A stretch of DNA of 64,000 nt from Morchella semilibera. Its lineage: Eukaryota; Ascomycota; Pezizomycetes; Pezizales; Morchellaceae. Where the stretch lies: the NCBI GenBank assembly GCA_009192285.1, contig WBVU01000021.1, positions 278,995 to 342,994 of the forward strand. Direction: 5' to 3'. Shown in pieces: positions 14,120 through 35,249 of the stretch. Within the stretch, counting starts at the first letter, position 1; each line of letters begins with the position of its first letter. The position numbers and the translations under genes were made by a program. The notes beneath the pieces are model-generated. The model did not search any database. It saw only the letters and a list, made by a program, of their open reading frames with translations, and was not told the DNA's origin.

Positions 14120-14521
14120 CATCAGTAGGTTCTATTAAGTTTGATTGCAGGGAGGATTGGTAATAAGATTTGGTGAGATGGTGGGGAGAAATACAAGATA
14201 TGTTTACGGTTAGTTTCTATGAGTCTGTATGGGTTGACGTATGAATCATACTGGACTGGTGGAGGAGGGTGTCAAAGAACGGATGTAGATGTCTTCCTTA
14301 GTTCTTTCCTTCTTTTCCCTCTGTTTCGTTTTTCTATCATTTTGGTATATAGGAATCTACCCTTATCTCTAGCTATAGCCTTCGTGACTTCGAGATCTGT
14401 TTTCAGTAATGAGGAAATCATAGTACCACTTATTATTTACGTTGAGATCCATTCGGTTCTCACCCTTTCTGTCTCATGCCTTTTGGCTCTGCCCTTGCCT
14501 TTGCTTTTGCCGGTACCTGTG

Positions 14522-14923
14522 TTTCATGTATAGGTTGGGATTGGAGGACTGGGCGGATTGGCAGGGCTGAGATTATGGTGCGCTAGGAGGAGGATATGAG
14601 TCAGAATAGTTCTATGGGTTTCTGTTACGCAAAGAAGTGAGTCATAGTCGGGATTATGCGAGGGTATGAGTCAGGCTTGGCAATGGAGTGTCGGGTATAT
14701 AAGGAAGGCCGGCGTGTCTACTCCTGTGTTTTCTTCTCTTTCCTTTCTTCTCTACGCAACGTCTTCTGTAACCAGTATTCAATATACTTTATAGTCCCTA
14801 ATTCTTTAGTGACTATCGCTGCTTATTTAATTCTTCTTTTATACGTCCCTCGTACTTGGGTCGTATCGCTACAACAACTTGTGCCCTGTGGAACGAAGCT
14901 ACACCGCCACCCCCTCCTTGAGA
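14522..14923 (+). repeat. 5' LTR of the Ty3/gypsy element
   Basis: 402 bp. It contains a probable promoter (GGGTATATAAGGAAGG near 14692) followed by the pyrimidine-rich TTTCTTCTCTTTCC stretch. The boundary is fixed by the CTGTG duplication on its left and by comparison with the 3' LTR and the solo LTR at 12124. Confidence 0.93.
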
Positions 14924-14957
14924 TTACGTTGCGTCGTTATCCACGCTGCACCCAACC

Positions 14958-16210
14958 ATGTCTGCCCCTGCTCCTCCACCTCCTCCCCCAGCCACTATCA
15001 TGGATGGGGTCACCCTCGATGGTAACTACCAAATCCCTCAGACCTTTACAGAGTTCGAAGCAGTGGAGGACCTACACTATCACTACATACATCTCCGAAC
15101 CCTTATACGGGAAGGGGATCGATGGAAGGCAGAACGAGACGCTAGCCAAAACTTACACGCCCAAACCAGGCAAGAGTTGACCACCGCAAGGGACCAACTC
15201 ACCGCCTCCAATAACCACACCGATGCTCTGGAAGCCCAGGTTCGCACCCTGGAATTCCAACTCGCCGCGGCCCGAACTGCACCACCACCACCACCACCAC
15301 CACCGCCACCACCCCCAATAGTACCTCCCCCATCAGCCAATGCCCCTCCTCCAGCCTTCCGTTCTGAGAAATTCCCAGACCCCCCCAAGTTTAACGGAGC
15401 CCGTAAGGAGCTACCCGGATTCCTCAGCCTCCTCCGCACCAAACTCAGAGTGAACCATGACAGGTTCCTGAATGAGGAGGCTAAGGTGTTCTACGCTGTT
15501 TCTCGGTTGGAAGGAAAGGCGTTGGACCAAGTTATCCCCATGGCCACCGGAGATGCTCCTCCATTCACTTCGGTCGCTACCTTCGTTACGTGTTTGGAAG
15601 CCTCCTTCGGGGATCCAGACCCCCGAGGTACCGCCAGGAGGGAACTCCAGAGCCTCCGCCAGGGCAAAGGAGACTTCGCCACCTATCTTACACAATTTTT
15701 GCGCATCATGGGCCAACTCGATTACAAACGAGGAGGCCAAGAAGGACGCCCTAGAAAATGGACTATCTGACGACCTTAAGGATGCAATGATATACCAGGA
15801 CACCACTACGGAGGGCTTCGATGCGTATGTTAGAAGGCTTATGACCATGGATAATAGGATTAGGGCTAGGAAGGATGCCCATAAGGCCAACAGGAACCCC
15901 ATGGGACAATTTGCCTCACAACCCGCCCCCCCACATCCGTCGCATACTCCGGGAGGCCTTGCCCCTATGGACCTTTCAGCTCTCCAAGCCTGCCCCGCCA
16001 CCCGTCCCCCGCCAGAAGGGCGATATACGTTAGCCCATGGCCGACGACAGACCACTGCTGCAGAAAAAAATGGAGGATGGAAAATGGCCGCTGTGCCTAC
16101 TGCGCCGCCCCCGACCATGTTTTCGCCAACTGCCCCCAAGGTAACCGCCCCCGTGGCCCCCTCCGGCTATGAGAGGCGCCGCTTTATCTGCCCCTCCCGC
16201 TGCCCCTATT
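14958..16210 (+). pseudogene. gag region of the Ty3/gypsy fossil
   Basis: This is the structural region of the element: a proline-rich start, a coiled-coil stretch, a poly-proline run (about 15285-15330), a retrotransposon-gag core (PKFNGARKELPGFLSLLR) and a CCHC zinc-knuckle signature near 16095-16140. The general layout is that of fungal gypsy gag. It is damaged and treated as a fossil. Confidence 0.75.
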
Positions 16211-16377
16211 GAGCCTCTTGCTTCTTCTTCTTCTTCTTCTCCTCCTGCGGATGTTCTTTCTTCTTCTGGTGTTTCGGGGTTTCAGTAGTCCCTGGTCAGT
16301 ATTATGGCCCTCGCCAGGGACCTTCAAAGGATTTTTCTTTATCTGCGTTTTCTATTTCGGGTTTCTCGGTTTCGGTT

Positions 16378-19300
16378 ATGGCAGAGGAGGAGTTAAATGG
16401 AGACCACTTAGTTGTAACTTGCAATATTGCTCACAATAAGAACTCTATTTCCACTTATGCTATGATTGATACTGGGGCCTCGGGATTCGCATTTATCGAT
16501 GAAGACTTTGCGCGCCATCACCAACTCCCTCAACTTACTCTTAAAACTCCCCGTGTGCTCGAAGTTATTGATGGAAGGCCTATAGCTTCTGGCCGAATTA
16601 CCTCGATTTGTTATGTTCCTCTATCTATTGGCTCCCATCAAGAACAAATTCCTCTCTTTGTTACCAAACTAGGACAATACCCCCTGGTTCTTGGTATTCC
16701 TTGGCTACAACATCACGATGCCACCCTGAAGTTTAGGGACAACACGGTAGCTTTTGATTAGGAGTTCTGTAAAAAGAACTGCAATGTTACCAGCAATGCC
16801 GATACTATTTCGGGTATTAAACCCCCAATTTATATGATAGGCCCCGTCCCCTTTAGCCGCCTCGCCCGCCGCAAGCAACTACAAATCTGTAGTACAACCC
16901 TCTATGAAATTGAAAAAGCTCTCCAGGTCACCCCGAAGAATGAATGGAAACAGAGGATTCCCGAACGCTATCACAATCGGTTAGATATGTTTGATGAAAC
17001 TTCGGCCCAGGATTTGCCGCCTCGCCGTCTCTATGACCATCAGATCCCCCTAAAGGAAGGGAAGGAGCCACCCTTCGGCCCTCTTTATGGCATGTCCCGG
17101 GACGAATTATTGGCATTAAGGGATTATATTCACGAAAACCTCTCCAAGGGTTTTATTCGCGCAAGCTCATCCCCCGCCGGAGCGCCAGTACTATTTGTGA
17201 AGAAAGCCGATGGGTCCCTCCGCCTATGCGTGGACTACCGGGGGTTGAACGAGTTGACGGTTAAGAACCGGTATCCACTACCTCTAATTCGGGAAACCTT
17301 GGATCGACTCTCAAAAGCCAAATGGTATACCAAATTGGACTTACGACAAGGATATAACCAGATCCGAATGGCCGAAGGGGAGGAATGAAAAACAGCGTTT
17401 AGGACTCGTTACGGACACTTCGAGTATACTGTCATGCCATTCGGCCTTACCAATGCTCCCGCCACCTTTCAACACTTTATTAATGATTGCCTCCGAAAAC
17501 ACCTAGACCAATTTTGTACTGCATATCTGGATGATATCCTTATTTACAGCGATTCTCTGGAAGAACACGAACGTCATGTCGAAACAATATTGGGAGTACT
17601 GCAGAAGAATGGGATCCTACTGAAGCCGGAGAAATGCGAATTCTATACACAAAGTACCACCTATCTCGGATTGATTATCGAACCCAATGGTATTCGCATG
17701 GACCCTCATAAGGTATCGGCCATACAGGAATGGACAACCCCTAAGACGGTTAAGGATGTGCAAGCATTTTTGTGTTTTGCTAATTTCTACCGCCGCTTTA
17801 TATTTGGGTTTTCAAAACTCGCGGCCCCCCTGACTAAGCTGACGAAGAAAAATGTTCCCTTTATATGGACCCTTGAGGCAGAAATGGCATTCCAATCCTT
17901 AAAGGAGGCCTTTATTACCGCGCCTGTATTGATCCATTTCGATCCTGAAAAGCCAATTACGGTGGAAACGGACGCATCGGATTATGTTGCTGGTGGTGTT
18001 CTCTCTCAGCACGACGAACAAGGGGTGTTACACCCTGTGGCCTTCTTTTCCAGGAAACATACACCTGCCGAGTGCAACTACGAAATATATGATAAAGAAT
18101 TATTAGCGATAATCAGGTGTTTCGAGGAATGGAGGCCGGAGTTGGAAGGGGCTAAACACCCTATCGAGGTTATATCAGACCATAAGAATCTCGAATACTT
18201 TATGTCCACCAAACAACTCAATAGGAGACAAGTGAGATGGGCCGAATACCTCTCTCGTTTTGATTTTGTTATTAAATATCGACCGGGCAAACAAAGTGGT
18301 AAACCGGATGCGTTGACCAGGAGATCAGGAGATCTCCCTGAGGAGGGGGATGAAAGATTGTTGCATCAGAGTCAGACGGTTCTGAAGAGAAAAAATTTGG
18401 ATGCTAAGTTAAGTTTGTTGGCGGGTTCTTTGGCAAATGAACCCGCTGAAAAGAACGTCCTCCTACAAAAGTTATTCGTCGAAGGATACCTAGCTGACCC
18501 ATTTCCGCAAAAGATTCTGGATCTTTGGAAAACAGATACAAAACACTGCAAGGAAATATCCTTAGCCGAATGTACCGAAGTGGATGGTCGTCTTCTTTAC
18601 CGCGAAAGCATCTATGCTCCCGACTATGCACCATTAAAGTTGAAGATTCTAAAACAATATCACAACGCCCCCTGGGCAGGACATCCCGGGAGGGAAAAGA
18701 CCTTTGAGTTGGTTAGCAGAGACTACTATTGGCCTAACATGCGGGAATATATCGGTCGATACATTCGTAATTGCCATATTTGTCAACGAAGTAAGCCAAC
18801 GAACATGGTAAAGTTGGAGTACTTCGACCGTTACCTATCCCAGAGCAACCCTGGAGAGAGATTTCCATGGACTTTGTTACAGGCTTACCGGAGAGCGAGG
18901 GTTATGATGCTATATTGGTAGTCGTGGATCGGTTAACGAAGATACGCCACCTCCTACCCTGCAATACTACTGTTAATGCGGAAGAGTTAGCCAAGCTGTA
19001 CTTACAACACGTTTGGAAACTACATGGCCTACCAATGTACGTTACATCTGACAGGGGGACTCAATTTACAGCCAAGTTCTGGAAATCCCTTTGCACACAG
19101 CTCAAGGTCGAAGCCAGGATGTCTACAGCTTTTCATCCGGAGACGGACGGCCAGACAGAGAGGCTGAATGCAGTAATGGAACAATACCTCCGGGGATACA
19201 TGTCGTATCAACAAGATGACTGGGTTAAGTGGCTACCAATGGCAGAATTTGCGGCAAATAACCAAGTATCAGCCTCTACCAAAGCGACCCCATTCTTCGC

Positions 19301-19814
19301 CAACTATGGATACCATCCTCGGTTTACAATAGACCTTCGGAAACCAGAAAGGACTCCGCCGACCCTTGATGCCTACGACTTTGCAGGGAAGATGAAGGAG
19401 CTGCATGATTATTTGCGAACCCAGTTAAGGACGGCACAGGATCAACAAGAAAAGTCTGTGAATGCGAAGCGTACTCCTGCCCCACGATACCAGGTCGGAG
19501 ACATGGTGTTTATTTCAGCAAAAAATATTCGTACAGCACGGAAATCACGGAAGCTCGATTGGAAGAGGTTGGGACCCTTCCCCATTCAGGAGATTATATC
19601 CCCCTATGCCTACCGCCTGAGTCTTCCTCGCTCTATGAAGATGCATCCTGTCTTCCACGTTTCACTGCTCGACCTTGCCGCCGTCGACCCTGTAGCAGGT
19701 CAAATACCGCCGCCGCCACCACCCGTTATTGTCGACCAGAAAGAAGAGTTCGAAGTTGAGGAAATCTTGGACTCACCGGTACCATGGGAAGCAAGGGCTT
19801 CAGTATTACGTTAA
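16378..19814 (+). pseudogene. pol region of the Ty3/gypsy fossil (protease, RT, RNase H, integrase)
   Basis: Domains in order: aspartic protease (AMIDTGASGFAFID, about 16460), reverse transcriptase ([21 protein letters not shown] near 17525), RNase H (VETDASDYVAGGVLSQ near 17965), and integrase with its HHCC finger (HPGREKTFELV...CHICQRSK) and catalytic core (TSDRGTQFTAKFW near 19045). A C-terminal part with FEVEEILD resembles a chromodomain start. The order RT-RNase H-integrase defines Ty3/gypsy (Metaviridae). The region is broken in a few places. Confidence 0.88.
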
Positions 19815-19963
19815 GTGAACAGGATATACGGATCCTACGTGGGAGCCTGCGGAATATCATGAACAGACTGCAGCCGTCGATATTTTTCATGCCCAATACC
19901 CGTACAAGCCAGGGCCGGGGGGAATGAAAGCTCGCAGGAGCTCGCGCTTGAAGGGGGGGCTAC

Positions 19964-20365
19964 TTTCATGGATAGGTTGGGATTGGAGGACTGGGCAGAT
20001 TGGCAGGGCTGAGATTATGGTGCGCTAGGAGGAGGATATGAGTCAGAATAGTTCTATGGGTTTCTGTTACGCAAAGAAGTGAGTCATAGTCGGAGTTATG
20101 CGAGGGTATGAGTCAGGCTTGGCGATGGAGTGTCGGGTATATAAGGAAGGCCGGCGTGTCTACTCCTGTGTTTTCTTCTCTTTCCTTTCTTCTCTACGCA
20201 ACGTCTTCTGTAACCAGTATTCAATATACTTTATAGTCCCTAATTCTTTAGTGACTATCGCTGCTTATTTAATTCTTCTTTTATACGTCCCTCGTACTTG
20301 GGTCGTATCGCTGCAACAACTTGTGCCCTGTGGAACGAAGCTACACCGCCACCCCCTCCTTGAGA
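19964..20365 (+). repeat. 3' LTR of the Ty3/gypsy element
   Basis: 402 bp, about six differences from the 5' LTR. It is preceded by the purine tract at 19951-19959 and followed by the CTGTG target duplication at 20366-20370. Confidence 0.93.
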
Positions 20366-20975: not shown

Positions 20976-21464
20976 TGGGTTTTATAAAAAATGAGGTTCT
21001 TAGTCTTTTTTATAATTATTCTTTTGGTGATGCTGTTTCTTATTAGAGATTTAATTGTATATTTTAATGTTATTTATTATTTTTTTTGTTTATAGCTCAA
21101 GTAGAAGAAATGAGCGGCGAACGTAGTTTTTGGTCCGTTTAGAGAGCATAGTAGCTTGCAAGTTGCTTGTATTAAAAAGTTGTATTATTGCATGAAGAGT
21201 TATTTCCTTTTGTCTTGTTGTACTAGTCCTGAAGAGTTGGGGATGGAGAATTTTTTGTGTCTTTGTTAGTATTGTTTTTTTCTATATATATCAACATATT
21301 ATTGATAAAGTATGATAGTTTTTTTTTTTTGAAATAGAACTAAAAGTGAATTAGGTTCGGGGTCTCCCCTGAGGAGTGTCAATTGTATTAAGCGTTTTAG
21401 ATGCTTTTGAAATACCTTTATATTCTATATTCAGGATAACTTGTAAGTGTTAGGTATATAGTTA

Positions 21465-23300
21465 TTGATGCCGCAATTTTTTTTTACATCTATTCTTCGA
21501 ACTTATGGTCTCTTCTTGCAACGTTGGTCTTTACCGAGGGGAGAAATTAATTTTGAGTTATTTTTCGTTCCTCCCGGTCATAAATCTTCTGGTAGGAAGT
21601 TAGCTTCCCAAGTCAATATTGTGTTTTGGAATCCTAGTTCCGCTGGGGAAAGATTACCTTCTAAATTTGATTGCTGGGATTTCAATTATAGTTTTCTTGT
21701 ATCTGTTGATGCTGTATTGCTTGGTGTGGATATGATGACTATAAATGATAGGGCCAGTGAAGTTCTTAGGGACCACCACCATTGCTTGAAGGCCATACAC
21801 ATGAAGCAATCTGTTCATCATTGTTCCGCTGCTTGGAGGAATTTGGTTAGAAGGTCTTTTATTGTGACACAATCGTCCTCTACACTTCATCTGAGGACCT
21901 CTGCCCATAGCTGAGCTGGACGTTTCTTACGTACAGGAGGAGGAACAATTATGAAAGATCGAAACAAGATGTTCTTTTTAGGAGATTGGGTACGCCTTTG
22001 GTTTTACCTATTAGAGCTCAAAATAGGTGGATTTTAGTGAGCACGGAACGTTGTGATCATGGGGGAGGCTTGTAGCAGATGATGATTCAATTATTAGTAA
22101 AGATTTCATTTGTTGATTTGTTTTTGCTGATACCTGAATTTGATAAAAGGTGTTTCCCCCACCCCCACCTTCCCAACAGGTTTTGGTTGTTTTACTGATG
22201 GTATAATCGACTGTTAATTTTTTGACTTGTTTAGTTGTCAACTTTCTCAATAGGCAGTGTGGTATAATTCGCCTACTGTTCTGAAGACTATTATCGTAAT
22301 AGTGGCATCATTTGGTATTCCAGTAAGAGACAAGGAACCCCTGTGGTTTTGTTATCCTCTGCGGTAGTGGGCTTAGAGTCAACCAGTTACGTTAAAGGTA
22401 TGGAGGGAGTTCTTGTTAAGAAAGGGGTAAGGTATTGGGATGGAATCGATTTGGATTCTATTGTGTTTGACCTTGATTCTGTTTCTTCTTTGGGTATCTG
22501 ACGTAATCATGAGTTTGAAAGATTTCATTTTGAGATTTTCACTTTTAGTGGGAAGGGTTGCTATCATGTTTGAATTTTATTGTGGGGAGCAGGCCTCGCC
22601 TCTCATCCCTACCCGTGTTGGACGTTTTTTGATCTTCGTCAAGGAATATTCAGAATTTATGAAGACCCACAGAGAATTGGTTATGTTGATGATAATAACA
22701 TTTGTTTTTATGGTGTTGTTGATTGCGACAATGCTCTTTGTAGAGAATCATACTTTCTTTTTATTGGGACGTAGGAGAATGTATTTTTTATTTATGCTAT
22801 TTGAAACAGAGTGAAATGTATTGTTTTGAGAAAAATCAAAAATGCTTTCTTGAATCTTTTGGCGTTTTTTGTAGTTTTATGAGGGAGCGAAAGAATTTAG
22901 TTAGTTTTTGAGCATGAACTTTTATTCCTCTGATCTCTTGATTCATAGATCGTCACATGGGTTTGGTATTATATATAAAAGGGGGGTTTGTAGCCAGAGT
23001 CTGTTAGTTTTGATCAAGTATATAAGGTACCCCTCATGGTAAACATGTCACGATCAACAACTTTTGTGTATCATAGAAAGCGTGGGCCCTCTTTTATGGG
23101 GGAGCTTGGGTTTAGGGGGCATTTTTGCAATATCCTGATTTGTTTTGTAAGTTTTATTTTTTGGATCCAAAAGATTCCTTTACTGAGAATCAAATTATGT
23201 TAGTTCTTTTGCTGCTTCCTAGGTTTTAGAATGCGGAGTATCTTTTTAAGACAAAGTTTGCTTTGTTTGATATTTCTCATGTCCCACTTATTGCCATGAA
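21465..23300 (+). pseudogene. candidate structural-protein fossils of element copy 1
   Basis: A reading frame at 21465-21914 contains the pattern KLASQVNIVFWNPSSAG and FDCWDFNYSF, which aligns with ALARAQQDIFMYPLSGG and YSWYDFTQDF in the minus-strand frame at 31687-31228. The downstream tract (about 22260-23300) keeps scattered coding-like stretches such as GMEGVLVKKGVRYWDGID. I do not recognise a family. A capsid role is suggested only by position opposite a Rep gene. The tract is strongly AT-rich and broken. Confidence 0.4.
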
Positions 23301-23322
23301 ATTAATGTCCAAAAGAAACCTG

Positions 23323-23430
23323 CATCAGCAAACTCAACTTGTGACTGGAGTCTCCCAACAGTCTCTTGGGTTTCCTGAGAGTCTCCTGAGGCTCAGGAGA
23401 CATCAGGGGACAAATGAAGTCTTGCTGATG
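23323..23430 (-). repeat. MITE family A, copy 2 (shortened)
   Basis: Reverse orientation, ends CATCAGCAAACTC and AGTCTTGCTGATG. One internal repeat block is missing, giving 108 bp. It is inserted in the copy-1 fossil tract. Confidence 0.85.
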
Positions 23431-23593
23431 TATATTGACATATTAGGTGGGAAATACGTATAGGAGGTCTTCTTCATTTTTCTTCTAGCATGAGGCTATT
23501 GGCTCGGAAATTTACTCGGAGGCAGTTTTGCTTTAGCCATGCGTAGTCTATTCTTTTACCGACAAGAGGTTTACCGGTGTGGTTGGTTACGAG

Positions 23594-24082
23594 TCTAATG
23601 GGACGGAGTCGGGCTCAGGGACGAGGCGGGGTAGAATTCAGGGACAGAGGCAGGACGGGGTCGGCTCAGGATATACCCAAGGCGAAGCTGGTCCGGGTTC
23701 AGGTTCAGGTTCAGATTCGGGGACGATGTGGAGACAGAAGGGCCGAAGCCAAAGTAATGTATTGCTAACAGAAAGAAGACGTTGCCTAGAGAGGCAGAAA
23801 CATAGGAAAGAACGAACTCTATATATACAACTCTCCCATCACACCGCTGACTCATAACCATAGAATCCCATAGAACCTCCCCCACTTCCGTACCACCCAT
23901 ACTATTCCCAATACCCATACTTCTAACCCGATACTACCCCATCCTCCCTAACGCTTACATTCTATCACCCGAGCTCCTTCCTAATCCATCATCCTACTTC
24001 CGACATCGACCGATACTATCCAACAACCCTGTTCCGAAGACGCCTTGGCGGCAGGCGAGGTGCGTAAGGCGGAGCCGTGATA
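23594..24082 (-). mobile_element. solo LTR, second family, copy J2
   Basis: This 489-bp repeat, closely similar to 13628-14119, has its own 5-bp duplication ACGAG (23589-23593 and 24083-24087). Shared landmarks on the + strand are AAGCCAAAGTAATRTATTGC, AGAAGACGTTGCCTAGAG and CCGAAGACGCCTTGGCG. It lies between the converging genes of element copy 1. Confidence 0.85.
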
Positions 24083-24099
24083 ACGAGGGGGTCATAGTT

Positions 24100-24235
24100 C
24101 ATCAGCAAAACTGCATTTATCTCCCGATATTCCCTGAGCCTCACGAGACTCAAAAAATATTCCAGAATCTCAGGAGTCTCTCAGGAGACCCGGGAGACTG
24201 TCGGCAGACCCCAGTCACAGTAGAGTTCCCTGATG
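24100..24235 (+). repeat. MITE family A, copy 3
   Basis: Start CATCAGCAAAACTG, core CAGGAGTCTCTCAGGAGACC, end CCCTGATG. It abuts the 3' remains of the Rep fossil, 17 bp from solo LTR J2. Confidence 0.82.
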
Positions 24236-24239
24236 TTGA

Positions 24240-25866
24240 TTGTGAAGATTATGGGTATACCGTTTCTTCCGTGTTCTCTACCCCTTTCGAAGTTGACAAT
24301 CTTGCAGTACGTCTAGCTGGAGCTTGTCTCCGTTCCCTGTAGAATTCCCTTATAACCTTTGATATCTTTGATTCTCACATCGTCAATGTGGTTGAAATCG
24401 TCATCGTTTCTGAGGTCGTAGGGATTCTATTTCCTGGAGACGTAGACATGTTTTCCTAGGCTTTGGTCGTAGAGGCTTTTCCCGGATCCTGTTTCGCTAA
24501 CGATCAAGAGAGCGAGTTGACGTCCATTCCATCGCGTTTCGAGAAACACCTTTTTTCCAGTTCCCGATAGCTTTTTAATTTTTGGTGTATTAGTATTGTT
24601 ATTGGTTTTGGGGTCCCCTGTGGGGCGTTCTGTATATATTGTATGGTTATACCTCGTATGTTTTCCATTTTTTTTCTTTATTCCTTTGGGTAGTTCCCAG
24701 GTGGTGCTTTTCCTGAGTTTCCTGAACTTTGTTTTGTATATTGATGCAGGCGCGCCAAGCCTCCCTGGAGTGGAGCTGCTCTATTGCTTGGAGCGCTGCT
24801 TCCCTAGTGGGTTGTTGGCTGAGTGTGTACAAACTTTCCTGTGTGAAACCGTGGGCTCCTTTTGCGGAGGGTTTTCAAATTTAATGAACTCGTCGTAGAA
24901 CACACTATCCGATGGGTCGTCCTTTTTGTTGATGTATTTCCATGTGTTGTGCATGAAATGGATGGCTTGGATGTTTGGGTGGTAGGTTTTGTCGTTGATT
25001 TTGATGTCCCATGCTCCTAATGATGATACTTGACTTGGACGGCCTTCTGCAGCTGTGGGCATTTTCATCATCATCTCTTTTGGTATGTTAGTGCGATTCT
25101 TTGTTGTTTTGGTGATAATAATTTGTGCATATTTACTTACGTCAGAATGCTTTGCATTTTCTGGTGCGTTTTCCCTTAGCCTGTGGTTTTCCATGCGGGT
25201 TCTCCATTTTTGCAAGAAATAGTTCCATTACCGCATAGTTGCTTTGAAAGCTCCTATGCTCTCGTTGTGTTGTGGAAATGTTAGGAAGTTGTATTTCCTT
25301 CTCATGGTGAGTTTGGTAGGCATTCCATCTTTGTTTAGAAACGCCTATTGTGAGTCCTCTACTATATTCTCTGGTATAGTTATTGAGGTTTTGTTGATTT
25401 GTTTGGATAAGTTTTCCGCTATTTCGTTGTCTCTTCTTTGTTGCCATTCCCCCGCAGTTTCTCTTGATTCTAGTGAGGCAGGCGGAGCCATGGAAGGCAT
25501 TGATGTTTGTTTTCTTGGAGGCGACAGAGGAGCAATTGGATCATTGGATTCTTTGCCACCATGTAGAGGGTTCTCTTGAGTCCGTTTGTTTGGTTGTGTT
25601 GTTTTCTATTCAGTGTCAGGACGGTTCTATGCTAGTTCAGACACGTCTTTGTAGCGATTAAGGAATTGAGCTACTAACCCACTTGTGTTTACAGGAAGGT
25701 TGTTCTCCGAACGTATTTTGGACTCTGTTTCATTGTCATTGATGAAACCTTCGTCTTCGGTGTTCATTTGGTCTTGTTCGTTTTCTTCATGAACTTCCTA
25801 TTCAGTATCATTGTCGGAGGCAGAGGCGTCCGCTTCGTATGTTAGGAAACGTAAGGGTGAAGTCAT
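24240..25866 (-). pseudogene. geminivirus/genomovirus-like replication initiator (Rep) fossil, copy 1
   Basis: Rep proteins of circular ssDNA viruses nick the origin with an HUH-type endonuclease and unwind with an SF3 helicase. On the minus strand I see motif I FLTFPQ (25287-25270), then TYHPNIQ and WKYINKKDD (near 24990-24920), which match the geminiviral HPNIQ...YxxKxGD block with the catalytic tyrosine. Next come Walker A ETGSGKS (near 24489-24475), Walker B DDFNHIDDV, YKGILQGTE and GRNGIPIIFT (motif C region), where a MITE ends the visible part. An acidic, probably disordered N-terminal extension of roughly 190 residues is longer than in geminiviruses. It is a fossil with several breaks. 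Confidence 0.82.
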
Positions 25867-25929
25867 TTTGGTTTGAAGTTGTCGTTACTTCAGAATTATT
25901 TAAGTGAATGAGGAATAGGGAGTGGAGGG

Positions 25930-25962
25930 TTGCAGCGGGGTCCTCTCTGGGAAGCTGCCCCG
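25930..25962 (+). promoter_or_regulatory. intergenic motif shared with element copy 2
   Basis: GCGGGGTCCTCTCTGGGAAG here matches GCGGGGTCCTCTTTGGGGAG on the minus strand near 31783-31764. Both lie just outside coding remains of the Rep-bearing elements. The segment can form a stem (GCAGC...GCTGC). Its role is unknown; an iteron, promoter or packaging element is possible. Confidence 0.4.
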
Positions 25963-26166
25963 GAACGATCGCTCACTTTGGTGAGTCAGCATACATTGAT
26001 TATTAAGGTTCTAGTAACTGTGTTTACGTTCAACTGTTTTCAGGTTTCGTTTAGTAATTTTGTTTTTGTCCATTCTTTTGTGGTATGTGGCACGGTGATC
26101 CTGAGCCATGCTGAGATATTTGTGTCAAATTAAATTAAGTTCCATTAGGGAAAAGTAGTCACGCGA

Positions 26167-26205
26167 GCAGGAGTGTGGACTGTAATAATATTATTGCACT
26201 CCTGC
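26167..26205. promoter_or_regulatory. candidate rolling-circle origin: stem-loop with TAATATTAT
   Basis: A perfect 9-bp stem GCAGGAGTG/CACTCCTGC encloses a 21-nt loop holding TAATATTAT (26186-26194). This nonanucleotide at a stem-loop apex is the nicking site in genomoviruses and close to TAATATTAC of geminiviruses. It lies about 300 bp upstream of the leftward Rep fossil, where a viral origin is expected. A TATA-like TATAAATATA follows near 26411 for a rightward transcript. Confidence 0.72.
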
Positions 26206-26496
26206 CTGCCACCATACAAATGAAGATTTAGATGTATTCCAATATAGCGGTAGGAATGTTCGAATAGACGTTTTACATTGGTTGAGGCATACAAGACCCT
26301 GTTGGGTCTGCCTTTCTAAGGCGTAGGTTTTGGAACAAAATTACAGAGCACTCTTGTTCAGTGACGATTGACACTATAGTAATATATTGTCTGCCCCTTG
26401 TACCGACAGGTATATAAATATACTTGCCGAAAGGGAGTAGCAGGCCACCCTTGATATTTTTTGATTTATTCTCGCATAGATAATGCTGGTCTATTA

Positions 26497-27982
26497 TTCC
26501 GGCGTCTTGGCAATGGTCCTAAGGGCTCGGTAGTCGAAGCGTTGTTGTGATTGTTTAGGTATTGCTAAGTGAGGAAGGGGTGTGGTGAAGAGGGGGTGTC
26601 GTCATCAGGTTCTAGGAGGTTCGATGGCGTGATGGATTTGTAATGTAAATAGCAGAGATGGTTGGGAGGAATGCGAGGTGTGGTTGTAATAGATTTCTAT
26701 GAGTTTCTATGAGCTGATGCATGAGTCATAGCGGACTGGTGGAGGAGAGGTGTTAAATAATGGGTGTGGATCTTTTCCTTAGTTCTTTTTTTCTTCTCTC
26801 TCTGTCTTGTCTTCCTGTTATTTCGGTACATAGGAATATTCTCCTATTATCCAGCCATAGTTCCTCGCACCCAAAACCTTGTCCTCTTTTGGGAAACTCA
26901 TAGTACCTCTCATCGTTCTTGTTGAGGTCCATCTGGTCCTCACTTTCCCAGCCCTGCGTTCTTTTGCATCTGCCTGTGCCTTTGCCCTTGCCTTTCCCTT
27001 TGCCGGTGCCTGTGCTTGTGCCTGCCCAGTGTTATTCCTGTCTTCGTCGGTATCCTCGTTGCGCTAGCTATACTCCTCGAGTCCTCCTGCGTCATCATTG
27101 TGATCTTCTACTTTGTGTCAGGTTACTCCGTCACATCTATCCTGTTTAGGGAAAGTTGATTTTAGCGGTTGATGAGTACTCAGTGTAGTAATTGGGTGAT
27201 CATATTATGTGCGCATGGAGTATTTATTACTAGTCATGTATATGTGTGTTCAAAGGTGGTCTTGTGGCAGGTAGAATCTCACGTTGTGCATATGCAAAGC
27301 CCTACGTGCTAAGGCGTGTGCATAACCGCTATCATATTAATGCCAGACATTTTTGTGACGAAGTAACCAGACGCAAAGAAGAAGATGACAATGATGACGC
27401 AGAAGGACCCGAGCAGCATAGCCTCAGCGATGAGGAGACCGACGAAGACAAGGATAACGCCAGGCAGGCACTGGCACAGGCACAGGCAAAGGCAAGGGCA
27501 AGGGCAAAGGCACAAGAGCGCGGAACAGGGAAAGTGAGGACCAGATGGACCTCAACGAGAACGATGAGCGGTACTATGGGTTTCCTCTTTCAGGAGGACA
27601 GAATCTTTGGTACGAGAAGCTATGGCTTAGAAATAGTAGTAGATTCCCATGTACCGAGATGAAAGGAAAACGAGACAGAGAGAAAAGAAAGAAAGAACCA
27701 AGGAAAACATCAAACTCCACTATTTAACACTTCCCCTCCACCAGTCCGCTATGACTCATACATCAGTTCATAGAAGCCCACAGAAACCCGTCGCACCCAC
27801 ACCTCGTTTTCCTCCCCACCATCTCCGCTATTTACATTACTAATCCATCACGCCATCGAACCTCCTAGAACCAAATAACGACAACCTCCTTTAGCACACT
27901 CCTTCCTCGCTTAACCATTCCTAAACAATCACAACAGCGCCTCAACTACCGAACCCTCGAGACCGATGCCAAGACGCTAGGA
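26497..27982. mobile_element. foldback-family element, complete copy FB3
   Basis: The left arm (26497 to about 27150) and right arm (about 27355-27982) are long inverted repeats of about 620 bp with outer ends GGCGTCTTGGCAATGG and GATGCCAAGACGC. Each arm carries a hexamer array (GGCAAR/GGCACA units, near 26975-27020 and 27465-27515), which gives misleading Ala/Arg-rich frames. A 200-bp spacer separates the arms. No transposase is visible. It appears to sit between the origin region and the basic-protein gene of element copy 1. Confidence 0.75.
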
Positions 27983-28273
27983 CAATTTTGATTTGCTCTA
28001 TCACATTTTGCACAGTGAGGTATTTATTTACTTTCAGATCTACATGTGTTTTATTGAATTGTTTTGTAAGTGAATATTTGTATCTGTTTGTACCTACCTC
28101 TTCGCGTTAAGTTACGTACTTTCAGTTTCCTTGTAGTTTAACTTTTTCTTCATTGGGTTCATTGTCATTTTGTTTCTCATTTTACAGAAGTTTACCTTTT
28201 GTACCACACCATTCCGATTTGAGGTATATTTTTGATTGGTTCTTTTGTTCTTGTTCTTGCTGATATTTAGATT

Positions 28274-28983
28274 TATGGCTAGGGGTTTTGAAGCCCGGGA
28301 GGTCAATATTATCATTAATAAGAGATCTGGTGATTCAGGGGGTTCTCGATATCATAGTCATTCTCATACCTTTAAAAAGCCTTATTGTGGAGGGAGGGGT
28401 GGGAGTTTGGGTGTTAGGAGGGCTTATCATACCCGTACCTCTCAGAACCGATCTATTGCTAGGGAGTCATATTCGAGTTAGGGACTCGGATAGCGAAGCA
28501 ACAGGTGCCAGCTTATTGGGGTGATAGATATTATGGAGAGCCGTCAGAGCTTGCTCCCAAGAGAGCTCCACCTCCGGATTCTGTGCTTGTGAAACATACC
28601 ATTTTGCACTCGTTTGTTGTTTCAGCGCCTGGTGCGGTAACTGGTACGTTGGGTGATAATATCTATTTTCATACTGATACAGGAGAGTTCATCAGCAAGA
28701 CTTCATTTGTCTCCTAATGTCTCCTGAGCCTCAGGAGACTCAAAAGATCTCCAGGAGTCTCAGGAGACTCTTGGGAGACTTGGGAGACTGTTGGGAGACT
28801 GCAGTCATAAGTTGAGTTTGCTGATGTTGAGGGTTTTGCACAATAATAAACACGTTAATCCTAATGACACTTATTTTATTTTCCTGACTGTTATTGTCTC
28901 TCCGGCCCATACCTCTGGGGCAGAGCCCAATCCTGATACGAGTATGGTTAATATAGTTTGGGCTTTAAGGTCCATTCTTATGT
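28274..28983 (+). pseudogene. basic-N-terminus protein fossil, candidate capsid of element copy 1
   Basis: The frame starting MARGFEAREVNIIINKRSG at 28274 is rich in His, Arg, Gly and Tyr (RYHSHSHTFKKPYCGG), as in the DNA-binding arms of small-virus capsids. A further stretch (VKHTILHSFVVSAPGAV, DNIYFHTDTGEF) leads to a MITE at 28690, and similar-style sequence (NPNDTYFIFLTVIVSP) continues beyond it. Direction and place, rightward from the origin-like stem-loop, match a virion-sense capsid gene. The identity is inferred; no family was recognised. Confidence 0.4.
28690..28826 (+). repeat. MITE family A, copy 4
   Basis: A well-preserved 137-bp copy, CATCAGCAAGACTTC to GTTTGCTGATG, flanked by TT on both sides. 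It was inserted into the candidate capsid fossil. Confidence 0.88.
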
Positions 28984-29042
28984 ATCAGCAAGACTTCATT
29001 TGTCTCCTGATGTCTCTTAAGCCTCAGAAGACTCAACAAAGA
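28984..29042 (+). repeat. MITE family A, copy 5 (5' part only)
   Basis: ATCAGCAAGACTTCATTTGT and the next 35 bases match the family start, then the match stops at the point where Rep copy 2 begins. The truncation suggests a recombination or deletion junction. Confidence 0.75.
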
Positions 29043-29722
29043 CAATACTGCCTGGCGCCTACCTGAAGAAACATGCCTCAAAAGATGGAGAAAGATAAAA
29101 CAGATAGAAGACTACTTAAACATCTTCATTCACTCCAAAAGAACAGGACGGCAGCTAGCGTTTTAAATCTCCAGCGAGACGGGATTAGGAAAATCCCCCT
29201 TCATCAGAAGCCAAGGTCGTCACTCCTATATCCCAAAATTCTGGGAACCAAGCAAGCACAGAGGGGATATGGACTTCAATTTGGTGGACGACCTACGCAT
29301 CGAGGATTTAGCTTACACATGATACAAGGGGCTTATCCAAGGCACGGAATTCTCCACATTGGGAAAATACAAAAAGATCATCAATTTCGACGGGGGCAGA
29401 CAATACGGCAGGAACGGAATACCAACGTTATTTTCCACAAACTACAACTCCCTCAACGAATTTGATCCGCACCCGGTGTCGGATAAAATGATCGATACAA
29501 AATAGCTCAAGGAAAACATATACCATATCGACTTTGGTGAAGTAAACCTGATGCTAGAGGACATTGAGGAAGACATCCTATACACCTTACCCCCTCATAA
29601 CGTGAATATACTCAGATCATGGAACACCCACCTCATGGCACTCCATGAAGAAAAAAGACAAGGGAGCGAGAGAGGACACCTACTGCTAAAGATAATAAGA
29701 GAAAACAACAAAAACTGGTAAG
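29043..29722 (+). pseudogene. geminivirus-like Rep fossil, copy 2 (helicase half)
   Basis: Plus-strand remains match copy 1 in order: SKRTGRQLAF, Walker A-like SSETGLGK, Walker B FNLVDDL, YKGLIQGTEF, YGRNGIPTLFSTN (motif C with its Asn), and a C-terminal part (ENIYHIDFGEV) lost from copy 1. The endonuclease half is absent; the element is cut at MITE copy 5. Similarity to copy 1 is clear but far from identical, so the two separated long ago or came from different molecules. It is a fossil with several breaks. Confidence 0.8.
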
Positions 29723-30163
29723 ACTAAACGTCAACGAGTAAAACAAGAAAAAGCTAACCAGGACAACCTAAAGGACTAAAGCAAAAACTTAAGATCTATG
29801 AAAACACATTGCGACACACTTTCCCTTTCTTTCACTGTACTGTAAAACCAAAGAATATCAAAAAATTAATTAAAAATACCCTTAAGTAGAGAAAATTCAA
29901 AACAAAACTACTAAAACAAAATGTCAAAGAGGGTCGGTCCCCTTTGAAAAATAAGGAGTACTTATATGTCCATAGTAATTTGTATGAATGCACTTGTACC
30001 AAAGTATATGAATCTGTATGCTATTTTGTATGTGCCAACATGTACCCATGCTTCCGGCAACAAGGTGCTAACCAAGCTTCACATCATATATAATATAAAT
30101 GAATTGAAAAAAATACAACAAAGTCAAGTTGCCATATTATTTTTTTGAAAAGGTTCATGTACC
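29723..30163. other. AT-rich convergence zone of element copy 2
   Basis: About 440 bp between the end of the Rep fossil and the opposing frame; no coding signal seen. Confidence 0.5.
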
Positions 30164-30610
30164 TTAACTACTAACTCTCCATACATGAAGGATAACCCTC
30201 ACAAAACAAACAACCACAATTACAAACACTATCTTCAACACTTTCCACATCCATTTGTTCATATCCCCCCCCACAACACTAAGGTGATTAAACATCGCAC
30301 AGGACCCCAAGGCTATCTCAGTCATCCTATATTCCTCCATGCCTACGGCAGAAAATCCCTCAAACACACAACCAATACCATTCTGTGAACACGTGAAATA
30401 GAAGACAACTAAGGAAGAATCCTCCAGTACCTGCCAGTGGACGCCTAGCCTGTAACGCCCAGTCCCGCACTGCCTGCAAAAAACCATATGGGACAAAAAA
30501 GAAGGGATAAATCTAGGGCTAATGTACGGGGCTGGAGGAGCCCCCTTATCAAGAGTGCCAGTAACAGTAACATACCAGGTCTCCAAAGAACCCGTCAGGG
30601 CAAGGAGCAA
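30164..30610 (-). pseudogene. candidate structural-gene remains of element copy 2, distal part
   Basis: A 148-codon open stretch (TWYVTVTGTLDKGAPPAP ... KWMWKVLKIVFVIVVVCF) with a hydrophobic C-terminal segment that could span a membrane. It converges on the Rep fossil as the structural tract does in copy 1. Unrecognised; treated as part of the fossil. Confidence 0.35.
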
Positions 30611-31092
30611 ATCGACAAGGTTCTCGGAGAGGGGAACAGCAGAGATAACAAGTATAGCGCATGCAGAAAATCAAGACTAAAAAATATCAGCCCACGCAAC
30701 AAAAAATAAACAAGCAAAGAAGAGCTATACCAGAGGGGAATACATGTTAGCTACTAAGTTGTGGGATGGGGTTAAGGAAAAAACATAGAAAAGGAATTTC
30801 AAAAATAAAAATATATATAAAAATATTTTCAGGCATCAGGACTAAACGCAAGAATACTAAACAAGGTGTGGGGGGATCTACACACCTTCATCGTCAATTA
30901 AGATACCCCTCCTATCCTTGCGCTCCGTGTTAACAAGTATCTCCCTTGTGGCAGAGCAAATAGGGAATGCTATTCTCGATCTGCGCGCATAGGGTATTCT
31001 CTGACATTCCCCCGATTGCCTACCGGTGCGATTCCTTGCTTTGGTATGAAGGTGTAGGGTAGATGATGAACGTGTTCTCTTGAACCTCCTAA

Positions 31093-31227
31093 ATCAGCAA
31101 ACTCAACTTGTGACTGGAGTCTCCCGACAGTCTCCCGGGTCTCCTGAGAGTCTCCTGAGGCTCCTGGATATTTTTTGAGTCTCCTGAGGCTCAGGGGACA
31201 TCAGGAGACAAATGAAGTCTTGCTGAT
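31093..31227 (-). repeat. MITE family A, copy 6
   Basis: Reverse orientation, ATCAGCAAACTCAACTTGTG to AAGTCTTGCTGAT, 135 bp and well preserved. It splits the structural-protein remains of element copy 2. Confidence 0.87.
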
Positions 31228-31687
31228 TAGTAAATACAAGACTCCTCCAACCGGCGCAAGAGGCAAGAATACTGTCGAGAATGTATAAATCCTTCAAGCG
31301 CATGTAATGAGCCAGATAAACATTCAGGGCAGATTCCATCAAAACCTCAATGGAGACGCCTCTCCCCCTTAAACCAGAGGAAGTGGCGTAGAAATCTTGA
31401 GTAAAATCATACCAACTATAAGACAACGGTACCTCAAGACCGCCAGATAATGGATACATGAAAATATCCTGCTGCGCCCTGGCCAGAGCGCTTCCATTCA
31501 TGCTGCTATTTCCCGAAAAGTATCCCCCAAAAGGTACCGGAACTCGAATCTTATCTGAGTTTAAAGGCTGCGGGAGTTGAAGCCCTCTATATATAGATCT
31601 AGACATGACGGGGCGAATACATAAGATAGGGAGAATAAGAATTAAGAAATGAAGCAAAAGGGACAAGCAACTTAATATACATGCCAA
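31228..31687 (-). pseudogene. candidate structural-protein fossil of element copy 2
   Basis: The segment has ALARAQQDIFMYPLSGG, LSYSWYDFTQDF and LASCAGWRSLV, each with a counterpart in order in the copy-1 tract at 21465-21914 (KLASQVNIVFWNPSSAG, FDCWDFNYSF, HHCSAAWRNLV). The frame may begin at MSRSIYRGLQLPQP (near 31608); an upstream hydrophobic stretch is also open. A family-A MITE interrupts the 3' part. Function unknown. Confidence 0.45.
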
Positions 31688-31749
31688 ACCAAAAATGACG
31701 CCAAGATGCCACTAAGTCACTGAAATGAAAAAGTAGACCATTTTCTTCG

Positions 31750-33159
31750 GTGCCGCTCCCCAAAGAGGACCCCGCGGCTACCCCCGTTCTCTCAAGGTTC
31801 TTATCACTAATTTGATTTCGATTTTAAAAATATTTGATAAATTATTACTACAAACATATATAAATACTATAAGAAAAATAAACAAATCGCTAAATCATAA
31901 CTCAACTTGTATACACGTCAGTTAAACCAACCTTTCAAATGCCATGGGAACCCATCTAGACAAAGCACAAGGAACCTCCATTTCCATTAAATATGCCCAA
32001 GCGGCAAGCAAAATAAAACTTTAAATTCAACATAGAATGGAAAATGTAACGCGTGTACCCTGTAATGATGATGTAGGGCTAATAACTAAAGCAAGCGCCA
32101 AACACAAAAATGACGCCCGCCGCTAAAAACCCAAAGATTTCTCCAACAACAGAAATAAAACCATCACAGCTACGGCCCCTCCACCCAAGAGATGCACTCA
32201 ATTCTAGGTGCATGTCATTCCCGAGCATAATGTCCTATAAGCGATGAACTATACCAGTGCAGATGAACGGGGCCCAACTATCCAATCGTCTTGCGGAAGT
32301 CGTGAACAATCACAACCTCTGTGGCATGTAACACTCAAAACGATCCCACCGTTGACAAGAGTACCAACTAGGTGGTTCATTTTTCTTCTGGCACGGCATA
32401 GCCATAGTTTCAGGCATACGGGATCGTAGCTGCTCAGGCGAACGTTCAACGCTTTTTCCGGTCGGCAAAAGGGAGCGGCCGTCGGCAAAGGGAAACCGTT
32501 TCATGACCTAATGAGATATGGGCATTTAACCCCTTCTCTCCGAGCAAAAGAGAGCTAGAATGAAGAACTGCATTCTATTGTAGTAGGATAAGTGCCAAAC
32601 AATAACACGGAAGGAGCAACCAACTAAAGAAACATGTACCCCTACAGCCAAAGTGTATAGGACAGTGCGCGTATCAGAGGACCAGAGAGGGTTGCGATCA
32701 AAGGTGCCATACAGTTAATACCCCCCTACGGTAGATATCCTTTTGAGGCACCCTAGAAATAAAAGCAAACATAACCAAGGAGGCAACAAAAAAAAAGGAC
32801 AAAACATACGCGACATATACCTAACATAGGCATCTAAGCGCTAGGCAAAAAACAAAATTAGCAAACAACTACGAAACCAGAAACAATGCAAAATTAAACG
32901 CATTGAATATACTTGCCCCAATCAATATGGGTAATGGGAATACCACAACATTTGAAACTGGAAACAAGTCAGGAAATGAAAACATACCCAAAACCAGTTG
33001 GGGACTGGGTCCAGTCTTCCTATCTTCCTAGAGTAGGTCGGCGGAAACCGTAACAACATATCAAAGGACCGCGCGAGAAGAGAATAATGCCACAGATTTG
33101 CTTACAGTGCAAAAGGGTGGGGAGAACCCCACTCATATATACAAATCAACTACACACCA
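31750..33159. other. intergenic tract right of element copy 2
   Basis: Begins with the 20-base motif shared with copy 1 (minus strand, 31783-31764), then AT-rich DNA with short minus-strand frames near 32249-32504. I could not find a second origin stem-loop or a second basic-protein gene here. Confidence 0.45.
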
Positions 33160-34417
33160 AGTGTTCCAGCTTCTTGGCATTTGTTCCAATAGTTCGGTAG
33201 GCAATGCACGGTTGTGGTTGTTAGGGAAATGTTAAGCGAGGGTGGGGAGTGCGAGGTGGAGGTTGTCGTCATTAGATTCTAGGAGATTCGATGGCGTGAT
33301 AGATTTGTAATATAATTAGTAGAGATGGTGGGGAGGAATACGAGGTGTGGTTGCGATGGGCTTCTGTGGGTTTCTATGAACTGATGTTTGAGTCATAAGC
33401 GGACTGGTGGAGGAATATTGTTAAATAGGGGGGATGGATGTTTTCCTTAGTTCCTTCTTTCTTTTCTCTCTGTCTCGTCTTCCTGTTATTTCGGTACATA
33501 GGAATCTACTCCTCTTTCTAAAGCCATAGCCTCTAGTACCAAAGACTCTGTCCTCCGATAAAGAGGAACCTCATAGTATCCATTATCGTTCTCGTTGAGG
33601 TCCATTCGGTCCTCACTTTCTCTGCCCTGTGCCCTTGCCCTTGCCTTCGCCGGTGCCTGTGCTTGTGCCTGCCCGGTGTTGTACTTGTCTTCGTCAGTCT
33701 CCTCGTCGCGTAGACTGTGCTCCTCGAGCCTATCTGCGTCATCATTGTCATCTTCTTCTTTGCGTCGGGTTACTCCGTCACACTCACGGAGTAACCCGAT
33801 GCAAAGTAAAAGATGACAATAATAACGCAGAAGAACTCGAGGAGCATAGCCTTCGCGACGAGGAGACCGACGAAGACAGAGACAACACCGGGCAGGCACA
33901 AGCACAGGCACTGGCAAAAGCAAAGGCAAGGGCAAAGACACAAGGATGCAGAGCAGAGAGAGTGAGGAGCGGATGGACCTCAACGAGAACGATGAGAGGT
34001 ACTATGAGTTTACTCCGAAAGAGGACAGAATCTTTGGAGACGAGGAACTATGGCTTTGGAAATAAGAGTATATTGCTATATACCGAAATAACAGGAAGGC
34101 GAAACGAAGAGAAAAGAAAGAAAGAACTAAGGAAAACATCTAAATCCGCTATTTAATACCTCTCCTTCACCAGTCCGCTATGACCAATATATCAGGTCAT
34201 AGAAGCGCATAGAAACCCATCGCAACCACACCTCGTATTCCTCTCCACTATCTTCTCTTAATTATATTACAAATCAATTACGCCATAGAATTTCATAAAA
34301 TATAAAGACAACATCCTCTCCTTATTGCACCCCCTCTCCGCTTAACATATCTTCATTAATTACAACAGCGCTTCGACTACCGAACCCTCAGATCCGATGC
34401 CAAGACGCTGGGACACT
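33160..34417. mobile_element. foldback-family element, complete copy FB4
   Basis: The left arm 33160-33785 and right arm 33787-34417 are inverted repeats meeting almost directly at the centre (TTACTCCGTCA CAC TCACGGAGTAA). The outer ends are AGTGTTCCAGCTTCTTGGCA and TGCCAAGACGCTGGGACACT. Hexamer arrays occur in both arms (near 33625-33670, 33895-33935). No coding capacity for transposition is visible, and no clear target duplication was found. Confidence 0.8.
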
Positions 34418-34559
34418 CCTGTCGAAAACCGAAGGAAAAGTCTATTTGGGATTGCAAATATTGCTGAAATTAAAGTTAGAGAGAAGATCTTTTGATGTGC
34501 AATGGCCTCAGATTGTTACCATCGATGTATTGCATTGCCCATACAGGGCCATACCTCTT

Positions 34560-35249
34560 TACTATTGCGAAACAAAGAAGACTTGAGTTGGCAATTGACT
34601 TTTTAACTAGAGAGTTCAAGATTAGCAAGATATAGTTCTCACCAATGAATGTGCTTTCAACGTTGGTGGTTGTCCTGGAAACATTTGAGTTACAAGGACA
34701 AGTAAGGAAGAGTTTCTTGAAAACTGTCTCATACCGAAGTTTTGCAAATTGGACACTATCATGGTTTGGGAATGTATCGTAAGCGGAAAAAGGAGTATAC
34801 TTGTTATCAGGAATTGTCAGAACTAGGGTAAAACTATGAATGCTCAAAACTACTATGAACATATAATTTGTCCTATTCTTTATCCTTTTTGGCAAAAATC
34901 CAGCAAGGAACTAGAAGGTTATATCCATATCCAGCAAGATAAAGTACATCTTAATAAATCAAAGTCAACTATGGCGGTTTTTCAAGAATTAGGCATGAAA
35001 AATTATATTTTTCCTTGGGCAGCTAACTCCCCAAATGCCAACATTATCGAAGATGTTTGGTTGAAAATGAAGGAAACTATTAACAGAATGTCGCCTAGAC
35101 CTACAACAAATACAGCAATGAAAACAGCTATTCTGGCAGCATAGGATATGATCACGGACGATGTTATCAAAGCATTGGTTGAGACTTTACCTGTCCACTG
35201 GCAGGTCGCTGCTATAAAGACAGCAAATAGAGGCTGCATCCGTTATTGA
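34560..35249 (+). pseudogene. Tc1/mariner-type transposase remnant
   Basis: The last half of a DDE transposase is readable in pieces: LTNECAFNVGG (first catalytic Asp region, with Asn where Asp is usual), RTSKEEFLENCLIPKF, DTIMVWECIVSGKRS, then YIHIQQDKVHLNKS (DNA with Gln-Asp, second Asp region) and PWAANSPNANIIEDVWLKMK (third acidic position in the usual SPDxNPIExxW place). It ends at TANRGCIRY, the usual short tail, before TGA near 35249. Frame changes near 34690 and 34830 and a stop near 35141 show it is dead. Terminal repeats were not found. Confidence 0.75.

What the first reader, a model, noticed from the sequence alone, without database searches (positions are those of the whole stretch)
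20976..33159. Two mirrored fossils of a multi-gene Rep-encoding (geminivirus-like) element
Two separate tracts carry a Rep-like helicase converging on a candidate structural gene: copy 1 Rep on the minus strand with structural remains on plus, copy 2 the reverse. The Reps share YKGILQGTE/YKGLIQGTE and GRNGIP, and the structural frames share a second set of motifs, so at least two linked genes were inherited together. Rep scraps are known in fungal genomes, but a linked, repeated Rep-plus-second-gene unit of several kb would be larger than geminivirus or genomovirus genomes and may be an undescribed group of virus-derived or transposing elements.
Basis: partly seen in the sequence, partly recalled or inferred. 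Interest (0 to 1): 0.9.

Follow-up and report, generated by a model that had tools for sequence, protein, structure and literature searches.

The report
Fossils of a two-gene Rep element
A fungal genome carries three insertions, two of them broken, of a roughly 5-kb element that pairs a geminivirus-like replication gene with a second, unrecognised gene, which suggests an undescribed lineage of small circular DNA viruses or virus-like replicons.

Summary
Two tracts in the window carry a geminivirus-type Rep facing a second gene: copy 1 (about 20976-26497, Rep on minus) and copy 2 (29034 to about 33159, Rep on plus, nuclease half missing). A third locus, on paired contigs C21/C22, has the same gene order and both genes largely open. 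C21 and copy 2 differ with dN/dS of 0.16 (Rep), 0.24 and 0.28 (gene 2), so both were working protein genes as the copies diverged. The C21 Rep shows the HUH and helicase motifs around a 70-nt intron-like gap. Gene 2 also looks spliced and matched nothing convincing. A 27-bp hairpin sequence was found in the 56.8-Mb genome only in these copies: beside Rep in copy 1, beside gene 2 in the others, always on gene 2's strand, as expected if a circle was opened at different points. The element spans 4.84 to 5.85 kb in C21. I read it as an endogenised circular Rep-encoding replicon, virus or virus-like, of a lineage I found neither in databases nor in print. That gene 2 is a capsid gene is unproven. 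Geminivirus-like Rep fossils in fungi are already known.

The parts
20976..26497 (.). Copy 1, old and broken: gene 2 remains on plus, Rep on minus, convergent; carries inserted dispersed repeats; outer limits set by neighbouring repeats, not by known ends
   Evidence: 25240-26497 is single copy in the genome
21462..22072 (+). Copy 1 gene 2 remains (matches start near 21621)
   Evidence: 35% over 98 aa to the C21 copy, 58.2 bits vs at most 23.1 in shuffles
23480..25344 (-). Copy 1 Rep in pieces: FLTFPQ within 25231-25344, second half of HUH domain with YINK 24784-25044, Walker A GSGKS 24430-24549, Walker B DFNHIDD 24316-24426, GRNGIP about 24226-24312, C-terminal piece about 23480-23569
   Evidence: 55% identity to residues 170-282 of the C21 frame, E 1.2e-31
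24096..24239 (.). Dispersed repeat inserted in copy 1 Rep (not part of the element)
25932..25958 (+). 27-bp hairpin motif, copy 1, upstream of Rep; found only in element copies
26167..26205 (.). Candidate origin hairpin of copy 1: 9-bp stem, TATTATTAC in the loop on the minus strand; not seen in the other copies
   Evidence: 1 of 400 shuffles as good; fold z -2.23
29034..33159 (.). Copy 2: helicase half of Rep, gene 2, hairpin motif, long non-coding region; aligned to C21 at 71-82% in four blocks, clear to 32989
29034..29718 (+). Copy 2 Rep, helicase part, with 3 stops
   Evidence: 81% identity to C21 Rep residues 137-368; dN/dS 0.157
30167..30670 (-). Copy 2 gene 2, second exon (inferred)
   Evidence: 59% identity to C21; dN/dS 0.278; CTGAT and TTTTTTAG before it in both copies
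30881..31606 (-). Copy 2 gene 2, first exon (inferred), split by a dispersed repeat at about 31083-31235
   Evidence: 68% identity to C21 over the 5' piece; dN/dS 0.237
31752..31778 (-). 27-bp hairpin motif, copy 2, upstream of gene 2
31870..32750 (.). Conserved region between motif and right edge, 78-90% identical to C21 although synonymous distance in the genes is 0.6-0.9; no clear codon bias
   Evidence: one Rfam hit at E 0.38 only

Best explanation
The tracts are independent nuclear insertions of a circular, rolling-circle-replicating DNA element of the CRESS (geminivirus/genomovirus-like) type. Its circle of about 5 kb carried two convergent, spliced genes: a Rep (HUH nuclease plus helicase) that would nick and unwind an origin, and a second protein of about 350 aa, possibly a capsid protein. 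A conserved hairpin in the large intergenic region is probably a Rep-recognition, origin or promoter element. Copies entered the chromosome at different breakpoints, probably by end joining of linearised or replicating circles, and two were then broken by mutation and by insertion of host repeats. Shown: gene content and order, selection on both genes, Rep motifs, the hairpin being specific to the element, one sharp junction. Inferred: the circle, rolling-circle replication, splicing, how it integrated, the capsid role.
For: Rep motifs FLTFP, HFH, YINK, GSGKS, DD, TNYN in order in the C21 copy. Gemini_AL1 hits in two frames of C21 at consecutive profile positions, 7-55 (E 0.029) and 61-100 (E 0.019). 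Best PDB hits of both halves are Reps: 6q1m, 6we1, 6we0 at E 0.029-0.1; 1l2m, 7vg8, 7kik at 0.19, 0.31, 1, with two potassium-channel chains at 0.43 between them; 6q1m and 1l5i (sequence of 1l2m) are named as geminivirus Reps in PMC10731770. Intron-like 70 nt with GTAAGT, ACTAAC and in-phase ends between HFH and VFI; gene 2 acceptor alike in two copies. dN/dS 0.157, 0.237, 0.278; the six shifted-frame controls gave 0.97 to 1.85. Motif at 4 places in 56.8 Mb at up to 2 mismatches, 0 for the reversed control, all 4 in element copies, with one compensatory pair. In copy 1 it is on the Rep side, in the others on the gene 2 side, always on gene 2's strand. The C21 left junction lies inside a gypsy reverse transcriptase; all 6 copies compared run on past it.
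Against: Only one motif supports permutation. Eight comparisons of other non-coding stretches of copy 1 with C21 gave 5 of 200 shuffles as good in three and 34 to 190 of 200 in five. From motif I of Rep to the hairpin is about 0.6 kb in copy 1 but at least 1.66 kb by the circular route in C21. No origin hairpin with NANTATTAC in C21 or copy 2. Right end in C21 not found. Pfam scores are below the curated cut-off; the six Rep pieces of copies 1 and 2 had no Pfam hit, copy 1's HUH piece no Rep among its PDB hits, and a helicase profile none. No relative among viral contigs or proteins. As single-stranded DNA, copy 1's hairpin is no more stable than shuffles (z 0.38).
Confidence: 0.68

Rival explanations
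1. A chromosomal transposon with a captured Rep, such as the Rep-bearing transposon of black truffle; the second gene is a transposase-like or accessory protein and ends are fixed.
For: Precedent in fungi (PMC3198968). The two window copies lie only about 2.5 kb apart. Transposase-like letters (recalled resemblance to Tc1/mariner) lie beyond copy 2 at 34476-35144.
Against: Three loci only. No inverted or direct match of the C21 left 60 bp in the right-hand stretches tested beyond shuffles, none. Motif position differs between copies. Gene 2 had no Pfam hit (one channel-helix hit at E 0.15 below cut-off); the 34827-35141 piece had none either.
Confidence: 0.17
2. A nuclear plasmid-like Rep replicon without capsid; gene 2 is a partitioning, regulatory or silencing-suppressor protein.
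For: Gene 2 showed no similarity to a capsid in the searches made. Rep-bearing plasmids related to these viruses exist, e.g. of phytoplasma and P. pulchra (PMC6668415 passages).
Against: Two-gene ambisense layout with gene 2 of about 350 aa is also that of Rep-plus-capsid viruses (recalled).
Confidence: 0.3
3. Unrelated decayed host or transposon sequence, with motifs seen by chance.
For: Copies 1 and 2 are both interrupted; their strongest DNA similarity is a host repeat.
Against: Selection, linked order at a third locus, shuffles, element-specific motif.
Confidence: 0.02

Closest known systems
Geminivirus-like Rep sequences and Rep transposon in fungal genomes (Liu et al. 2011, PMC3198968; passages and section 8 read)
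   Same: Geminivirus-type Rep integrated in fungal chromosomes
   Different: There: 42 Reps in truffle, all but one closely related and over 95% alike, with 37-bp TIRs and two transposase ORFs; capsid-related sequences only in tobacco and sloth. Here: 3 loci, no TIR found, a linked conserved second gene, motif in permuted position
Genomoviruses of fungi, e.g. Botrytis cinerea ssDNA virus 1 (PMC10731770; passages incl. part of the abstract read)
   Same: Rep with geminivirus motifs and a putative intron; fungal host
   Different: BcssDV1 has four segments of about 1.7 kb with one gene each; here two genes in 4.84 kb or more, and no match of gene 2 to a capsid in the searches made
Geminiviridae
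   Same: HUH motifs I-III and the helicase motifs; ambisense genes and spliced Rep in some genera (recalled)
   Different: No capsid match; larger; no TAATATTAC-type hairpin found in two of three copies
Helitrons and replitrons (recalled; only the listing seen)
   Same: HUH nuclease of eukaryotic mobile elements
   Different: Here the order is geminivirus-type HUH then GSGKS-DD-TNYN; membership in either was not tested

Membership tests
CRESS-DNA (geminivirus/genomovirus-like) Rep | HUH motifs I, II, III | tested here: met
   FLTFP, HFH, YINK in the C21 copy; Gemini_AL1 in two halves, sub-threshold
CRESS-DNA (geminivirus/genomovirus-like) Rep | Helicase with Walker A, B, motif C | tested here: met
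   GSGKS, VDD, TNYN in order; but no Pfam helicase hit
CRESS-DNA virus | Circular genome | tested here: inconclusive
   Permuted position of an element-specific motif
CRESS-DNA virus | Origin hairpin with nonanucleotide | tested here: inconclusive
   Present in copy 1, not found in C21 and copy 2
CRESS-DNA virus | Capsid gene | tested here: inconclusive
   Gene 2 unmatched; structure job failed and the tool was then off
Geminiviridae or Genomoviridae | Genome or segment of about 1.7-3 kb (1.7 kb from PMC10731770, upper value recalled) | tested here: not met
   At least 4.84 kb in C21
Truffle-type Rep transposon | 37-bp TIRs and transposase ORFs | tested here: inconclusive
   None found, but the right end is unknown
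Helitron | RepHel with SF1 helicase, TC...CTRR ends (recalled) | not tested
   Order of Rep motifs argues against

The most novel reading that the evidence does not exclude
An undescribed family of CRESS-DNA viruses of fungi with circles of about 5 kb, two spliced convergent genes, a capsid of unknown type and a large conserved non-coding region with its own bulged hairpin, known only from endogenous copies.
Probability: 0.42. Interest if true: 0.78.

Novelty: new variant of a known kind. Interest (0 to 1): 0.6.

Why it matters
Fungal chromosomes hold geminivirus-like Rep relics, but the 2011 survey read here (PMC3198968, passages) found capsid-type relics only in tobacco and sloth. A Rep linked to a conserved second gene at three loci gives a handle on the rest of such an element's genome: its size, splicing and control region. 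It would let one ask directly whether fungi host larger ssDNA viruses than the genomoviruses known.

Tried and rejected
Rejected: the 145-bp repeat as an element end (it sits inside Rep of copy 1 and gene 2 of copy 2 and gave no blast hit in the C21 element). A 110-bp stretch beside C21 and copy 1 as an element end: it belongs to an rDNA-linked repeat also at C21:965008. The foldback repeats at 26499-27984 and 33160-34418 as ends: related arms on C21 lie 4 kb or more from that element. RIP as the cause of decay: no clear signature, TpA/ApT 0.75-0.97 and (CpA+TpG)/(ApC+GpT) 1.06-1.21 over the seven stretches tested, though copy 2 has more C-to-T and G-to-A changes (340) than the reverse (210). 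A third protein gene in the conserved right region: stops or no codon bias in nearly all frames, but one 200-nt stretch (L020 8250-8450, minus) has a frame free of stops in both copies with pN 0.07 and pS 0.16, so a short exon there is not excluded. Gypsy resuming to the right of C21: only hits of 37-120 bp at 71-85% inside another gypsy, and a few on the left. Searches in 5.8 billion proteins with the C21 Rep frame (E to 0.001), the first gene 2 frame (E to 1) and a Rep profile (8000 best candidates, E to 1) gave nothing; the profile A8 probably has one misaligned piece. Alignments of Rep fragments came out partly misaligned and bear no claim.
Full report
What is there. The window lies in contig C17 of a 56.8-Mb genome that I take as fungal from 49 Zn2Cys6 cluster matches, with none in 14 control genomes. 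Copy 1 has Rep on minus and gene 2 remains on plus; copy 2 has Rep on plus and gene 2 on minus, so in both the genes converge. Copy 1 Rep survives as HUH pieces, Walker A, Walker B, the GRNGIP piece and a C-terminal piece, interrupted by an insertion that includes a dispersed repeat. Copy 2 keeps only the helicase half; its left flank holds pieces of the same dispersed repeat.

A third locus. Searches of the whole genome with pieces of Rep and gene 2 found the window copies and one more locus, present at matching places on C21 and C22. Those contigs agree at 99.2% over the 29 kb compared, and C9/C10 and C12/C13 show similar pairing, so I count one insertion in two near-identical contigs. The stretch L020 4149-9200 is identical in both. 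Gene order is the same. Rep has an open frame of 369 codons and gene 2 frames of 230 and 161 codons.

Ends. On the left, C21 matches six gypsy copies at 80-95% up to L020:4148, where the others run on through the reverse transcriptase and C21 switches to the element. To the right the gypsy was not seen to resume in the 10 kb fetched. Copy 2 aligns with C21 in blocks up to C21:993487 (L020 8988); identity in 150-nt bins falls to 58-60% from L020 8752 and 43% after 9052. The next known repeat in C21 begins at 994499. The element is therefore 4.84 to 5.85 kb in C21.

Genes. Between C21 and copy 2, Nei-Gojobori dN/dS is 0.157 for the Rep helicase part (224 codons, 3 stops set aside), 0.237 for the first gene 2 frame (201, 1 set aside) and 0.278 for the second (156, 1 set aside); the six shifted frames gave 0.97 to 1.85. 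Substitutions pile up at third positions of these frames in most bins. The C21 Rep shows FLTFP, HFH, YINK, GSGKS, VDD and TNYN in order. The frame changes right after HFH, at a 70-nt stretch starting GTAAGT, holding ACTAAC and ending AAG, with both sides in phase. AAG is an unusual acceptor (recalled). Gene 2's two frames are separated by a gap that ends in CTGAT and TTTTTTAG in both copies. Splicing is inferred, not observed. Gemini_AL1 is hit at E 0.029 and 0.019 by the two frames at consecutive profile positions, both under the cut-off; of the other 16 pieces scanned, six of them Rep pieces of copies 1 and 2, none hit it. The best PDB hits are Reps at weak E-values, and copy 1's HUH piece alone hit no Rep.

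Control region. The motif GCNGCGRGRTCCYCTYTGGGRAGCNGC was found, at up to 2 mismatches, in 4 places of the genome and nowhere for the reversed control: copy 1, copy 2, C21, C22; in the window 2 matches at up to 3 mismatches against 0 expected. It folds as a bulged hairpin of 13 pairs with one compensatory change; two pairs are broken by a mismatch and one by a gap in one copy each. It gives the most stable 60-nt window of the C21 stretches scanned, though copy 1's version is no more stable than shuffles as single-stranded DNA (z 0.38). It stands upstream of Rep in copy 1 and upstream of gene 2 in copy 2 and C21, on gene 2's strand in all. On a circle these are one place. The pattern was written from these copies, so finding them is by construction; the finding is that nothing else matches. 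Copy 1 also holds a hairpin with TATTATTAC in the loop (1 of 400 shuffles as good), not found in the others. The stretch 31870-32750 is conserved beyond synonymous sites without clear codon bias, apart from one 200-nt stretch noted under rejected ideas, and the one Rfam hit nearby is at E 0.38 (31689-31882).

Reading. Permuted motif, few copies, a geminivirus-type Rep, a second selected gene and no transposon ends in what could be tested favour integrated copies of a circular replicon. Against this stand the single permuted motif, different distances between Rep and motif, and no origin hairpin found in two copies. Gene 2 as capsid rests on position and size alone.

Literature. PMC3198968 (passages and section 8 read) reports geminivirus-like Reps in fungi, 42 in truffle with a TIR transposon, and capsid-related sequences only in tobacco and sloth. 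PMC10731770 (passages) describes a fungal genomovirus with a putatively spliced Rep. PMC6668415 (passages) places Reps of geminiviruses and genomoviruses together. In the rows shown by searches (several showed 10-15 of dozens to hundreds) I saw no other title or abstract start that describes a Rep-plus-second-gene element of this kind in fungi; the library holds open-licence PMC papers only, and I opened just the three named.

Noticed in passing
window 14514-20363: Ty3/gypsy LTR retrotransposon with RT, RNase H and integrase frames; 81.5% like one on C21.
   Followed up: partly
window 11346-11707 and 13184-13383, minus: Two fragments of eukaryotic LSU rRNA amid transposons; related pieces lie beside the C21 element.
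   Followed up: partly
window 26499-27984 and 33160-34418: Two foldback repeats with arms of about 630 bp, each abutting the right edge of one Rep copy.
   Followed up: partly
window 165-3032, minus: NACHT/NPHP3_N NTPase frame followed by a frame of ankyrin repeats, an NLR-like fungal gene.
   Followed up: no
window 34476-35144: Frames that look like decayed Tc1/mariner transposase (recalled resemblance; the 34827-35141 piece has no Pfam hit).
   Followed up: partly
genome-wide; window 23319-23434, 24096-24239, 28691-29040, 31083-31235: Short dispersed repeat with palindromic CCTGAGGCTCAGG core; 691 matches to a 23-mer with up to 1 mismatch.
   Followed up: partly
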